DNA of 41,123 bases from Chloroflexota bacterium (GTDB lineage: Bacteria > Chloroflexota > Limnocylindria > Limnocylindrales > Limnocylindraceae): positions 1 to 41,123 of the forward strand of contig JAPLHQ010000062.1 of the NCBI GenBank assembly GCA_026389555.1. Reading direction: 5' to 3'. The position numbers and the translations under genes are program-made. The notes under the pieces are model-generated. The model was not told the origin of the DNA. It saw only the letters and a list, made by a program, of their open reading frames with translations, and did no database searches. Below are positions 16,382 through 21,660 of the stretch, piece after piece (the stretch's first letter is position 1; every line of letters starts with the position of its first letter).

Positions 16382-17455
16382 ATGGGAGCCACAAGTCACG
16401 GCGTGCCAGCGATTCGGCTGGAGGGGATCACGAAGCAATTCGGCGGAGCGAGTGACGCTGCCGCGGTTGCTGGGATTGACCTTGAGGTGAGGGACGGCGA
16501 GTTCTTCTCGCTGCTCGGCCCATCCGGTTCCGGAAAGACGACCACGCTGCGCATGATCGCTGGCTTTGAGCGACCAACCTCTGGTCGCATCTTCCTTCAC
16601 GGCGAAGATGTCACCGACCTTCCACCATTCGATCGCGACGTCAACACCGTCTTCCAGGATTACGCCCTCTTTCCGCACATGAGCGTTGCGGAGAATGTTG
16701 CCTACGGGCTTGAGGTGCGCCACGTTCCATCCTCCGAACGCGCGGTGCGCGTCAAGGAGGCGCTGCGCATGGTGCGCCTTGAGGGGTACGACTCGCGCCG
16801 CCCAGCACAGCTCTCCGGCGGCCAACGCCAGCGCGTTGCGCTTGCGCGCGCGCTCGTCAATCGTCCGCGCGTCCTACTTCTGGACGAACCACTCGGCGCG
16901 CTTGATCTGAAGTTGCGTGAAGAGATGCAGATTGAGCTGAAGGCGATCCAGAGTGAGGTCGGCATCACCTTCATCTACGTCACCCACGATCAGCAGGAGG
17001 CGCTGACGATGAGTGATCGGCTCGCCGTCTTCAACCGCGGCCGTATTGAACAGATCGGTGCGCCGGCTGAGGTGTACGAGCATCCTCTCACCGCCTTCGT
17101 GGCTGGATTTGTGGGGAGCTCCAACCTGATCGCCGCGGAGGCGGCCCAGGCACTCCTCGGCCAGAGTGGGCGCTTTGCGATTCGGCCAGAGAAGATCCGC
17201 CTCGGCGAACCTACGGACAAGGTGGGGGCGGACGAGCATTCTGCGCTCGGCAAGATCAAAACGGTGGTCTATCTCGGAGCCGAGACACGCTTTATCATTG
17301 CCTTAGACATGGGCGGCGACCTGATGGTGACCCAGCAGAACCTGAAGGAGTCGTCAATGGAGGCGCTCTCCGCGCAGGGTCGGGCGGTCCGACTCACGTG
17401 GAAGCGGGGACACGTGCTGACCCTTGCGGATGATCCGCACGCTGTATCGGCATAA
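16382..17455 (+). CDS. potA: Polyamine-type ABC importer, ATP-binding subunit
   Basis: A 357-residue ATPase energising a spermidine/putrescine-type importer. It has Walker A 'GPSGSGKTT' (46-54), Q-loop Q92 ('VFQDYALFPHMSVAENVAYGL'), the signature 'LSGGQRQRVALARAL' (144-158), Walker B 'VLLLDEPLGALD' (164-175) and the switch motif 'VTHDQQEALTMSDRLAV'. A C-terminal TOBE-like region (about 280-355, 'RPEKIRLGE') is typical of PotA and related uptake ATPases. It is the first gene of potA-potD-potB-potC. The substrate is polyamine by family resemblance only. Confidence 0.88.
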   Translation: MGATSHGVPAIRLEGITKQFGGASDAAAVAGIDLEVRDGEFFSLLGPSGSGKTTTLRMIAGFERPTSGRIFLHGEDVTDLPPFDRDVNTVFQDYALFPHMSVAENVAYGLEVRHVPSSERAVRVKEALRMVRLEGYDSRRPAQLSGGQRQRVALARALVNRPRVLLLDEPLGALDLKLREEMQIELKAIQSEVGITFIYVTHDQQEALTMSDRLAVFNRGRIEQIGAPAEVYEHPLTAFVAGFVGSSNLIAAEAAQALLGQSGRFAIRPEKIRLGEPTDKVGADEHSALGKIKTVVYLGAETRFIIALDMGGDLMVTQQNLKESSMEALSAQGRAVRLTWKRGHVLTLADDPHAVSA

Positions 17456-17482: not shown

Positions 17483-18679
17483 ATGAAGCGAGCAAAAGGA
17501 TTCGCGCTGATGGCAGGGCTCGCGCTCTTGGTTGCCGCATGTGGCGGCAGCAGCACGAGCAGCGAGCCAGCATCGAGCGAAAAGCCAGCCGGTTGGTTGG
17601 AGAGCGTGGGCGCCGGTGAAGGCGCACTCAACCTGATCATCTGGGAGGGCTACGCCGAGCGCGGCGCCGTTGACCCAGCCTATGACTGGGTCACAGGCTT
17701 TGAGGCCGAGACCGGGTGCATGGTGAACACCACATCAATGACCGATTCTGCAAACGGCGTGCAGCTGCTCCAGTCCGGCGAATATGACGGCGGATCCTTC
17801 TCGGGTGACGCCTCTGTCCGCCTGATGAAGGCTGGCGACGTTGCACCGGTCAACGTTGGTCTGCTTGCAAATTATCCGAACGTCTTTGGCGGCCTGAAGG
17901 ACAAGGCGCACAACTCCATGGACGGGATGCCGTACGGCGTGCCACATGGTCGTGGTGCGAACGTTCTGATGTGGAACACCGCTGCGGTAACCACTGCGCC
18001 AACTAGCTGGGATCCAGTGTGGGAGGGCGGCGCTGCTTACAAGGGGAAGATCAGCGTCTACGACTCGTCCATCTACATTGCTGACGCAGCAATTCACTTG
18101 ATGGCAACCAAGCCTGAGCTTGGCATCAAGGATCCGTATCAGTTGAACGACGAACAGTTTGCGGCTGCGATCGCGTTGCTCGAAGTGCAGCGTGACAACG
18201 GTGCCGTCTACTGGGGTACCGCCGCCGACCAGATCACGAGCTTCGCTTCGGGCGACCTTGTGGTTGGAACCACGTGGCAGTATCAGGCGAACATGCTCGC
18301 CGCAGAGCCAGCAATCAAGGTTGACACCACCCTTCCTGCTGAGGGGTCAACCGGTTGGTCGGACACGTGGATGATGGCCACCAAGGCAGCACATCCAAAC
18401 TGCATGTACCTCTGGATGGATCACATGATGTCTGCCGAAGCGAACGCGCAGGCAACCGTCTGGTTCGGCGAGGCGCCAACCAGCGAGGCAGCATGTGAAG
18501 CGGCCGAGGCGCTCTCGCCTGGACACTGCGATCAGTTCCATGCGACCGACGAGGCCTACTTCGACAAGGTTTGGTACTGGTCAACGCCACAGGCTGACTG
18601 CGCCGATGACGACGCAGCCACCGCGTGCAAGGACCAGGACGCCTGGGTTGAAGCGTGGACCACGCTGCGCGGCAACTGA
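17483..18679 (+). CDS. potD: Polyamine-type ABC importer, substrate-binding lipoprotein
   Basis: A 398-residue extracellular solute-binding protein of the PotD/PotF class. The lipoprotein signal 'MKRAKGFALMAGLALLVAAC' gives lipid attachment at C20, followed by a Ser-rich linker. The mature part has family phrases: 'LNLIIWEGYAERG', 'FEAETGCMVNTT', 'PYGVPHGRGANVLMWNT' and 'TWMMATKAAHPNCMYLWMDHMMS'. Six cysteines in the C-terminal third (for example 'EAACEAAEALSPGHCDQF' and 'QADCADDDAATACKD') suggest disulfides, consistent with an extracytoplasmic place. A strong Shine-Dalgarno (TAGGAGGAG) precedes the ATG, suggesting high expression relative to the permeases. Confidence 0.88.
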   Translation: MKRAKGFALMAGLALLVAACGGSSTSSEPASSEKPAGWLESVGAGEGALNLIIWEGYAERGAVDPAYDWVTGFEAETGCMVNTTSMTDSANGVQLLQSGEYDGGSFSGDASVRLMKAGDVAPVNVGLLANYPNVFGGLKDKAHNSMDGMPYGVPHGRGANVLMWNTAAVTTAPTSWDPVWEGGAAYKGKISVYDSSIYIADAAIHLMATKPELGIKDPYQLNDEQFAAAIALLEVQRDNGAVYWGTAADQITSFASGDLVVGTTWQYQANMLAAEPAIKVDTTLPAEGSTGWSDTWMMATKAAHPNCMYLWMDHMMSAEANAQATVWFGEAPTSEAACEAAEALSPGHCDQFHATDEAYFDKVWYWSTPQADCADDDAATACKDQDAWVEAWTTLRGN

Positions 18680-18704
18680 CCGTAGCGGCGTAACCGGAAA
18701 CTCT

Positions 18705-18744
18705 GCGAGGCCCTTCGAGGATGTCGATCCCCGAGGGGCCTCGC
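18705..18744 (+). promoter_or_regulatory. Long hairpin enclosing the potB start codon
   Basis: GCGAGGCCCTTCGAGGAT pairs with ATCCCCGAGGGGCCTCGC across a 4-nt loop (GTCG). The stem has 18 positions with one G-U wobble and one A-C mismatch. The A and U of the potB ATG (18721) are in the top of the stem. It lies between the binding-protein and permease genes, where an mRNA structure can reduce permease output or stabilise the upstream message. No T tract follows. Confidence 0.7.
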
Positions 18745-19632
18745 GCTAACCTCCCGCAGCGGCGAAGCCTCAGCCGCCGCGTCACCAGCTGGTTCAATGC
18801 GCACCCGCGCGCAACTCTTCGCACCCTCCTGGCCGGACCACTCGGCTGGATTGGACTTGTCTACCTCGGCTCCCTTCTCGTGCTGCTCCTTCACGCCTTC
18901 TGGGCGAAGGATTCGTTCACAGGGAAGGTTGAGCCGTTCAACTGGACACTGGACGCCTTTATTCAGATTGCGAGCAATCCTGTCTATTCCACGATCGCGC
19001 TGCGCACCATTGGCATCGCGCTCCTTGTGACGATCACTGACGTCCTCCTTGCACTACCGATCGCCTACTACATGGCGCGCATCGCATCGCCGCGGAAACG
19101 CGGGCTCCTCTTGGTCGCCGTTACGATGCCGCTCTGGGCGTCGTACCTGGTGAAGGTGTATGCCTGGCGCACCATTCTTCAGGGGAACGGGTTCCTAGGG
19201 TGGGCGCTTGCGCCGTTCGGCATTGAGGGACCCGGCCTCAGTGAAATCACCAACGCCTGGATTGTGCTGAGCTATCTCTGGCTCCCGTACATGATCCTGC
19301 CGATCTACGCCGGACTCGAGCGCATCCCAAACTCGCTCCTTGAGGCCTCCGCCGATCTTGGTGGGCGCGCCGGCATGACCTTCCGTCGCGTGATCTTCCC
19401 GCAGTTGATCCCGGCTCTTGCGGCGGGCTCTATCTTCACCTTCTCACTCAGTCTCGGCGACTACATCGTCCCCGACCTTGTGGCCGACGCGAAGTTCATC
19501 GGCAATGTGATCTATGACAACTCCGCGCTCGGCAACTTCCCTGTGGCCGCTGCTTTCTCCATCCTTCCGGTGGTAGTGATGATCGGCTACCTGCTTGTGA
19601 CGCGCCGACTCGGCGCGTTCGATTCACTCTGA
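18721..19632 (+). CDS. potB: Polyamine-type ABC importer, permease 1
   Basis: A 303-residue inner-membrane permease with six predicted helices and a longer cytoplasmic N-terminus. The EAA loop that contacts the ATPase is 'EASADLGGRAGMTFRRVIFPQLIPALAAG' (about 215-243). The segment 'LSLGDYIVPDLV' is typical of PotB/PotH. The only usable start is ATG 18721, because no other ATG, GTG or TTG occurs in frame before the first helix. That ATG lies inside a strong predicted hairpin and lacks a well-spaced Shine-Dalgarno. It forms a heterodimer with PotC. Confidence 0.88.
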   Translation: MSIPEGPRANLPQRRSLSRRVTSWFNAHPRATLRTLLAGPLGWIGLVYLGSLLVLLLHAFWAKDSFTGKVEPFNWTLDAFIQIASNPVYSTIALRTIGIALLVTITDVLLALPIAYYMARIASPRKRGLLLVAVTMPLWASYLVKVYAWRTILQGNGFLGWALAPFGIEGPGLSEITNAWIVLSYLWLPYMILPIYAGLERIPNSLLEASADLGGRAGMTFRRVIFPQLIPALAAGSIFTFSLSLGDYIVPDLVADAKFIGNVIYDNSALGNFPVAAAFSILPVVVMIGYLLVTRRLGAFDSL

Positions 19633-19665: not shown

Positions 19666-20469
19666 GTGGTTGAGTCACCGCTCGTACGAGCGCTGCTGCG
19701 CGCCGCAACTGCGCTCGTGCTCGCCTTCATCTATCTGCCGCTGATCATCCTTGCGGTCTACGCCTTCAACGAGAGCAAGCTCGCCGCCTGGCCGCCAACC
19801 GGCTTTACGTTGGACTGGTTCGGTGAGGCGGCGGCGAATCCTGCGATCCGCACTGCACTGCTCAACTCTCTCGTTGCCGCCACCGCCGCCACGTTGATTG
19901 CGCTGGTGCTCGGCACGCTCGCCGCGCTTGCGGTGCAGCGATATGACTTCTTCGGCAAGAACACCGTCTCGTTCCTCTTTGTTCTGCCGATCGCGCTCCC
20001 TGGCGTTGTCACTGGCATTGCGCTGCAGAGCAGCTTCAAGCTCTTCGGCGTTGGCCTTGGCCTCCCTACGATCATCATTGCGCACGCCACCTTCTGCGTG
20101 GTGGTGGCGTACAACAACATCGTGGCGCGCCTGCGCCGCCTCCCGCGTAGCCCAGAAGAGGCGTCCGCCGACCTTGGCGCCGACTCTTGGATGACCTTCC
20201 GTCGCATCACGCTCCCGGGAGTGCGCACCGCGCTCCTCTCCGGCGGCCTCCTCGCCTTCGCCCTCTCCTTTGACGAAGTGATCGTCACCCTCTTCGCCGC
20301 TGGTGCTGGCACCAAGACGATCCCCGTCTGGATCTTCAACGCCATGCAGCGTCCCAACGAACTCCCCGTCGTCAACGTGGTCGCGCTACTGCTTGTGCTG
20401 ATCTCCGTGATCCCTGTCTGGATCGCGCAGCGTCTTAGCGGCGGTGAGATCGCGCGCGGCGGGCGCTAG
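19666..20469 (+). CDS. potC: Polyamine-type ABC importer, permease 2
   Basis: A 267-residue permease with six helices and the EAA loop 'EEASADLGADSWMTFRRITLPGVRTALLSGG' (about 162-192). The motifs 'FALSFDEVIVTLF' and 'TIPVWIFNAMQ' are typical of PotC/PotI. It starts with GTG at 19666, preceded by GGAGG about 7 nt upstream. It is the last gene of the pot operon; the next gene encodes a sulfotransferase 57 nt later. Confidence 0.9.
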   Translation: MVESPLVRALLRAATALVLAFIYLPLIILAVYAFNESKLAAWPPTGFTLDWFGEAAANPAIRTALLNSLVAATAATLIALVLGTLAALAVQRYDFFGKNTVSFLFVLPIALPGVVTGIALQSSFKLFGVGLGLPTIIIAHATFCVVVAYNNIVARLRRLPRSPEEASADLGADSWMTFRRITLPGVRTALLSGGLLAFALSFDEVIVTLFAAGAGTKTIPVWIFNAMQRPNELPVVNVVALLLVLISVIPVWIAQRLSGGEIARGGR

Positions 20470-20526: not shown

Positions 20527-21660
20527 ATGAGCATCATCGAAGAGCAGATTCAGGCCATACCCCGTGGCAGCATTCTGCTGCACATTGGCCCACATAAAAC
20601 AGGGACCACCAGCCTGCAGGCAGCCCTACGCGAAAACAGTGCAGCCCTGAAGGCACACGGCGTTGAATACATCGCGCAAGATGGCAAGCCCGCCGCAAAT
20701 CGTGTTGCGCGCTCACTCCTCCGACTTCCGTTCATTGGCAAGGAGGTTGTGCCATACGCGGAATGGGAGCAGTTCGCTCAAAAAGTTAATCAATCAGACG
20801 CCCCCCGCATCATCTTGAGCGGAGAGGAGTTTTCTTTTTGTGGCAGCAAAGAGATTCATGAGCTTGCACGAGTGTTTGGACGAGATCGTCTGCATGTGGT
20901 CATAACCATCCGGCCGATAGCGCGAATACTTCCCTCTCAATGGCAACTAGACCTTAAATCTGGTGCGATGATCCAAAGTTTTGATAAATGGCTTCATAAA
21001 GTACTGGATCCATCGCTCGCCTGGCGATGTGCGTCTTTACTTGGCTTTCAACATCCATTCTGGTTTCGGCATCACCATGATGAGCTCTATCAGCGATGGG
21101 CCAAGGTGCTCTCCCAAAACAAGGTGACATTGGTGATGGTTGATGAAGCAAACCCTAATGCACAGTACGAAGCGTTTGAAAGAATACTAGGTGTCCCAAG
21201 CGGAGTCATCCGGGCGAGCGAGGTCCGAAACACCTCCATGAAGCAGCTGCAAGCTGATATCTCACTAGAGGCGCGTAGAATTCTAAGGGCAGAGGGGTGG
21301 ACGGCGCCGAAAATCAAGAGGGCAGAGCTCATCGAATATTTGAAGCGGGCTGGATACAACCCTGATCTAGACGTGCCGGTGTTGCTCCCAGAATGGGCAC
21401 GGCTTGAGGTGGGAAAGATTTCTGAATCTATAGCGGCAGCATTCCAGCGACCTGGAGTCCGACTCATTGGTGATTTGAGCTTGCTTGATTCTAAACATAT
21501 ACGAACAGTCAGCCCATGCAACGAGGCAGATAACTCCGCAAGTGTGTTAGCGAGAAAAATTGTGGATGAAATTAAAGCAAATCGTGTCTTAAGGCGGCGA
21601 GATCATTTTGATTCGATATCAAGTATTTATCACAAAGTTATCACGAAGCTCAGAAGATAA
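20527..21660 (+). CDS. Sulfotransferase-like protein 1
   Basis: A 377-residue protein with the PAPS-binding signatures of the sulfotransferase fold. The 5'-phosphosulfate loop is 'LLHIGPHKTGTTSLQAAL' (17-34). The 3'-phosphate region is 'RLHVVITIRPIARILPSQWQ'. It is clearly related to the second sulfotransferase at 23114; both share the 'FDKWLH/FDQWLH' and 'VVMVDE/LVMVDE' blocks. The acceptor is unknown, and a sugar or polysaccharide is likely from the neighbouring EPS genes. The gene is visibly more AT-rich than its surroundings, especially the last 250 bases, which suggests recent transfer. A GAGAGGTG box lies upstream as a possible RBS. Confidence 0.82.
   Translation: MSIIEEQIQAIPRGSILLHIGPHKTGTTSLQAALRENSAALKAHGVEYIAQDGKPAANRVARSLLRLPFIGKEVVPYAEWEQFAQKVNQSDAPRIILSGEEFSFCGSKEIHELARVFGRDRLHVVITIRPIARILPSQWQLDLKSGAMIQSFDKWLHKVLDPSLAWRCASLLGFQHPFWFRHHHDELYQRWAKVLSQNKVTLVMVDEANPNAQYEAFERILGVPSGVIRASEVRNTSMKQLQADISLEARRILRAEGWTAPKIKRAELIEYLKRAGYNPDLDVPVLLPEWARLEVGKISESIAAAFQRPGVRLIGDLSLLDSKHIRTVSPCNEADNSASVLARKIVDEIKANRVLRRRDHFDSISSIYHKVITKLRR

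What the first reader, a model, noticed from the sequence alone, without database searches (positions are those of the whole stretch)
18705..18744. Start codon of the pot permease buried in an 18-position mRNA hairpin
GCGAGGCCCTTCGAGGAT/ATCCCCGAGGGGCCTCGC with a GUCG loop surrounds the only usable potB start, with the AUG at the stem top. There is no well-placed Shine-Dalgarno. Such a structure between a binding-protein gene and its permease would lower permease translation. It could also be a regulated switch (temperature, ligand or ribosome coupling).
Basis: seen in the sequence. Interest (0 to 1): 0.6.

Follow-up and report, generated by a model that had tools for sequence, protein, structure and literature searches.

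The report
Binding-protein gene's 3' hairpin covers permease start
The hairpin is real and conserved, but it belongs to the end of the binding-protein gene, where many bacteria put such a hairpin to make more binding protein than permease; only in this one genome has the permease's start codon ended up inside it.

Summary
The hairpin (18705-18744, MFE about -35 kcal/mol) is real and conserved. ATG 18721 at its apex is the only canonical in-frame potB start. The window is from a freshwater Limnocylindrales MAG (Chloroflexota, genus of Ca. Aquidulcis).

The evidence points to a 3' element of the binding-protein (SBP) cistron, not a potB switch. Six same-genus operons keep the pairing through compensatory changes, about 23 nt after the SBP stop, but start potB after the hairpin. 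Across 92 related operons, 71 have a perfect helix of at least 10 bp just after the SBP stop, against 5/89 after potB and 7/440 coding windows. Its position tracks the SBP stop (sd 14 nt), not potB (sd 50 nt). In this genome 7/13 SBP genes but 2/171 other genes carry one.

This matches known SBP-downstream internal terminators or mRNA protectors (Clostridia; E. coli malE-malF).

Peculiar to this genome: the relatives' potB ATG is lost, and the out-of-frame loop ATG has come into frame. Opening the start would cost about 31 kcal/mol, against 7.5-18 in relatives. Low potB translation follows, but a regulated switch has no support. The lost start rests on one unverified MAG sequence.

The parts
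16382..17455 (+). potA-like ABC ATPase, first gene of the operon
   Evidence: Pfam ABC_tran + TOBE_2; NCBIfam TIGR01187 potA 376 bits, above its cut-off of 355.6
17483..18679 (+). lipoprotein substrate-binding protein (YdcS/PotD type), stop TGA 18677-18679; strong SD AGGAGG
   Evidence: SBP_bac_8 1.8e-20; NCBIfam YdcS 1.5e-89 but below its cut-off; sequence
18705..18744 (+). 3' hairpin of the SBP cistron: 17 pairs, one A.C mismatch, GUCG loop; 25 nt after the SBP stop; no U tract after it (GCTAACCT)
   Evidence: fold and shuffles; inverted repeat; conserved with compensatory changes in six sequences of the genus; position locked to the SBP stop
18721..18723 (+). ATG at the hairpin apex, only canonical in-frame start of potB in this genome; same ATG present but out of frame in relatives
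18769..18771 (+). CTC codon at the place where all genus relatives have the potB start ATG
   Evidence: alignment
18721..19632 (+). potB/ydcU-like permease, 303 aa, under purifying selection (dN about 0.10, dS 1.1-1.4 to relatives)
   Evidence: BPD_transp_1; NCBIfam PotB 1e-35, below its cut-off; dN/dS
19666..20469 (+). potC/ydcV-like permease, GTG start with a strong SD GGAGG

Best explanation
The hairpin is the 3' element of the binding-protein cistron. Transcription of potA-SBP-potB-potC partly ends at it, and/or exonucleases trimming the mRNA from the 3' side stop at it, so that SBP mRNA exceeds permease mRNA (mechanism inferred from known systems). In the window's species the ancestral permease ATG downstream of the hairpin was lost, and a net 2-nt shift brought the hairpin-loop ATG into frame. 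The sole canonical potB start is now inside the stem, which should lower permease translation further as a side effect. Shown here: structure, conservation, position, association with SBP genes, start relocation in the sequence. Inferred: termination or protection, and the effect on translation.
For: Six distinct sequences of the genus, at synonymous divergence mostly 0.3-1.4, keep the stem (-33 to -40 kcal/mol; 5 pairs with changes on both sides; covariation score reached by 0 of 500 shuffles), and swapping arms between species weakens it in nearly every pairing with G000. A perfect helix of at least 10 bp within 85 nt of the SBP stop occurs in 71/92 related operons, against 5/89 after the potB stop and 7/440 coding windows. 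Hairpin centre: sd 14 nt from the SBP stop, 50 nt from a fixed potB residue. Own genome: 7/13 SBP genes against 2/171 other genes have a compact hairpin at or below -27; those 2 are a groEL-like gene and a gene directly upstream of permeases. Known precedents: PMC9045158 and PMC5927463.
Against: No RNA data for these uncultured bacteria. The window's hairpin lacks a U tract, so termination may be weak here; relatives have 3-6 T in the first 8 nt. Six of 13 SBP genes in this genome lack such a hairpin, at least one of them directly upstream of its permease with a short (26-nt) gap.
Confidence: 0.8

Rival explanations
1. The hairpin functions chiefly as a translational lock on the permease start: the ribosome must open it to start potB, and this sets permease level in this species.
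For: Sole in-frame start is at the apex; opening -18..+12 costs about 31 kcal/mol, against 7.5-18 in relatives and 7-21 for other window genes. Hairpin and potB ORF are both intact.
Against: In all six relatives the same hairpin does not contain the presumed start; hairpin position does not follow potB. A lock this strong would nearly abolish initiation, yet potB is under purifying selection.
Confidence: 0.15
2. The buried start is not real: the true start codon is non-canonical, or the MAG consensus is wrong around 18760-18775.
For: Only one genome has it; every same-genus relative has a normal ATG there. Contig from a fragmented MAG (127 contigs).
Against: The stretch differs from relatives by several substitutions plus a 2-nt gap, not by one error; no near-cognate start (CTG, ATT, ATA) in frame between the hairpin and TM1 (read).
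Confidence: 0.2
3. The loop ATG starts a conserved 17-codon leader ORF whose stop overlaps the permease ATG (ATGA), coupling permease translation to it; in the window's species leader and permease are fused.
For: In all six relatives, including the divergent G001, the loop ATG opens exactly 17 codons ending in TGA that overlaps the potB ATG; GATG is invariant in the apex.
Against: Peptide sequence not conserved beyond the hairpin; five of the relatives are close kin, two of them identical here; constant spacing alone could give this; the loop ATG has no accessible SD.
Confidence: 0.08
4. A regulated RNA switch (thermometer, riboswitch or ribosome-coupled switch).
For: Conserved structure at a start codon in this one genome.
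Against: Stem is GC-rich at about -35 kcal/mol with no alternative fold seen; no Rfam family reaches threshold; apex and flanks not conserved beyond GATG; same type of hairpin follows unrelated SBP genes.
Confidence: 0.03

Closest known systems
Internal transcription terminators downstream of SBP genes in ABC-importer operons of cellulolytic Clostridia and E. coli (PMC9045158)
   Same: Single stem-loop directly after the SBP gene and before the translocator genes; long GC-rich stem, few U after it; energies -38 to -10 kcal/mol; gives SBP excess.
   Different: Here in Limnocylindrales and other Chloroflexota/Actinomycetota; the window's copy has no U tract; the permease ATG lies inside the stem; termination untested.
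malE-malF protective hairpin and other decay-reshaped operons of E. coli, incl. polyamine potD (PMC5927463)
   Same: Stable hairpin between binding-protein gene and permease genes; binding-protein mRNA is the stabilised segment.
   Different: RNases and half-lives unknown here; whether the sequence is repeated elsewhere in the genome (as REP elements are) was not searched.
Start-codon/SD-sequestering hairpins and RNA thermometers (e.g. ROSE, cyanobacterial hsp17)
   Same: Start codon within a hairpin.
   Different: Far too stable and GC-rich to melt; start is inside only in this one of the seven genomes of the genus compared.

Membership tests
SBP-downstream internal terminator (PMC9045158) | Stem-loop in the gap between SBP gene and cognate translocator gene | tested here: met
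   25 nt after the SBP stop, before the body of potB
SBP-downstream internal terminator (PMC9045158) | Folding energy within -38.3 to -10.1 kcal/mol and long GC-rich stem | tested here: met
   -35.1 kcal/mol isolated, 14-bp outer helix
SBP-downstream internal terminator (PMC9045158) | 3' U-rich tract (may be short: types II-IV have few U) | tested here: inconclusive
   2 T in the first 8 nt in the window; 3-6 in genus relatives; the terminator scan does not report it
SBP-downstream internal terminator (PMC9045158) | Premature transcription termination in vivo | not testable with these tools
   needs RNA data
malE-type 3' protective hairpin | Stable hairpin at the 3' side of the SBP cistron, conserved | tested here: met
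malE-type 3' protective hairpin | Slower decay of SBP mRNA than permease mRNA | not testable with these tools
   no RNA half-life data
RNA thermometer | Marginal stability, melting in the physiological range | tested here: not met
   31 kcal/mol to open the initiation region
Riboswitch or other Rfam family | Match to a curated covariance model | tested here: not met
   no match near any gathering score

The most novel reading that the evidence does not exclude
The apex ATG is itself a conserved element: in the genus it opens a 17-codon leader ORF that overlaps the permease start, and in the window's species leader and permease have fused, so permease synthesis depends on initiation inside a 3' hairpin, combining transcript stoichiometry control and translational gating in one structure.
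Probability: 0.08. Interest if true: 0.55.

Novelty: new member of a known kind. Interest (0 to 1): 0.3.

Why it matters
It extends the SBP-downstream hairpin strategy to streamlined freshwater Chloroflexota and, by position, to many Actinomycetota, with a quantitative test (position locked to the SBP stop) that separates a 3' element of the upstream gene from a 5' regulator of the downstream gene. The start-codon relocation, if real, is a natural case in which translation would have to begin inside a very stable stem.

Tried and rejected
Riboswitch, thermometer or known sRNA: Rfam scan empty above threshold. Canonical U-tract terminator in the window: not reported by the terminator scan. Frameshift from the SBP into potB: TAA at 18691-18693 closes the potB frame upstream. 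Leaderless start from an internal promoter: no promoter-like site found near 18700. Alternative start downstream: none before TM1. A literature query for malE-malF returned mostly unrelated papers because 'male' matched; one useful hit was read.

Full report
Observation. The sequence at 18705-18744 is as described. It folds alone into 17 pairs with one A.C mismatch and a GUCG loop, MFE -37.1 kcal/mol in a 71-nt context, z -4.76, none of 200 dinucleotide shuffles as stable. Among the inverted repeats of the 41-kb window it is the longest stem-loop of high complementarity that is not a short palindrome. ATG 18721 is the only ATG/GTG/TTG in the potB frame between the in-frame TAA at 18691-18693 and the first transmembrane segment.

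Setting. The window is contig C74 of a 1.16-Mb, 127-contig MAG; its same-genus relatives include Ca. Aquidulcis frankliniae, freshwater Limnocylindrales, Chloroflexota. The operon is potA-like ATPase, YdcS/PotD-type binding protein, PotB-type and PotC-type permeases. The substrate is not settled: only potA passes a subfamily cut-off.

Genus comparison. Six same-genus genomes hold the same 5' region of potB (two of them identical over the hairpin), giving six distinct hairpin sequences with the window. All keep the hairpin about 23 nt after the SBP stop. Pairing is kept through change: five pairs show changes on both sides in at least one sequence, with 0 of 500 column shuffles matching the covariation score, and sliding the partner by one column lowers paired cells from 86% to 61-67%. 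The inner four pairs are drawn differently in relatives, by a bulge instead of a mismatch, so they count as unpaired in that table; folding each alone gives a full stem in each, -33.5 to -40.3 kcal/mol. Chimeras of one species' 5' arm with another's 3' arm are mostly weaker. The permease coding sequences differ at dS 1.1-1.4 between the window and those relatives that could be compared, so the pairing was kept over substantial divergence.

Where the start lies. In all six relatives the permease ATG lies after the hairpin, exactly 50 nt downstream of the loop ATG, with starts that cost 7.5-18 kcal/mol to open. In the window this position reads CTC and the distance is 48 nt, so the loop ATG, out of frame in the others, is now in frame. 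Opening the window's start costs about 31 kcal/mol, the highest of all starts tested. The permease is still under purifying selection (dN about 0.10). Thus start burial is peculiar to this genome, and the hairpin most likely predates it.

Wider comparison. In 92 non-redundant related operons from Chloroflexota and Actinomycetota, 71 have a perfect helix of at least 10 bp within 85 nt after the SBP stop; 5 of 89 have one after the potB stop; 7 of 440 coding windows do. Between distant groups the hairpin sequences look unrelated. Among the 68 with a stem score of at least 11, the hairpin centre varies with sd 14 nt from the SBP stop but 50 nt from a fixed potB residue. In 49 of 68 a potB start lies downstream of the hairpin; in most of the rest (mainly Actinomycetota with short gaps) the hairpin falls in the first codons of potB with a start before it. 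This is what a 3' element of the SBP gene predicts, and not what a regulator of the potB start predicts.

Own genome. Of 13 SBP genes with readable 3' flanks, 7 have a compact hairpin of -30 kcal/mol or stronger; of 171 other gene ends, 2 reach -27 (a groEL-like gene and an unclassified gene directly upstream of permeases) (Fisher p = 3.8e-6 at the -24 threshold, 7/13 against 7/171). Gene calls were simple ORF calls, so the control is approximate. In the other permease operons with a hairpin, the next gene's called start lies after the hairpin by gap length.

Mechanism. Wu et al. (PMC9045158) showed that stem-loops after SBP genes in Clostridia terminate part of the transcripts (20.7-96.1%) and affect SBP mRNA stability, with few U and long GC stems. 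In E. coli, malE and other SBP mRNAs, including polyamine potD, are the stabilised segments, and the malE-malF hairpin protects malE (PMC5927463). The window's hairpin fits both; lacking a U tract, protection or weak termination is the likelier share here. That it lowers permease relative to binding protein is therefore likely. That it is a switch has no support.

Uncertain. Use of ATG 18721 is inferred. One MAG supports the lost downstream ATG. The conserved 17-codon frame from the loop ATG in relatives is an unexplained regularity that could be coincidence of spacing.

Noticed in passing
L002-L006, L010: loop ATG to potB ATG (relatives): In six same-genus relatives the hairpin-loop ATG opens exactly 17 codons ending in a TGA that overlaps the permease ATG (ATGA), although the peptide sequence is not conserved.
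   Followed up: partly
L044, L049, L051, L053, L054, L059, L063-L065: In Solirubrobacterales/Thermoleophilia relatives a 16-17 bp near-perfect hairpin containing GAGGTC lies inside the first codons of potB, encoding a conserved RRS-x-G-rich stretch; L059 has no ATG/GTG/TTG in the potB frame between the SBP stop and the hairpin.
   Followed up: partly
L108 (hairpin at 39-87 nt after the SBP stop): Possible second case of a start (GTG) at a hairpin apex: the only other in-frame start lies far upstream inside the SBP gene.
   Followed up: no
L024 (G022): potB frame has no canonical start in or before the hairpin, and only one very late ATG.
   Followed up: no
L159 (G000:C106:22205-23830): groEL-like gene ends in a hairpin of -29.7 kcal/mol without a clear U tract, so U-poor GC hairpins may be a general 3' end in this genome.
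   Followed up: no
window 20527-21660: 377-aa ORF directly downstream of the pot operon with no Pfam or NCBIfam match at E 0.001.
   Followed up: no
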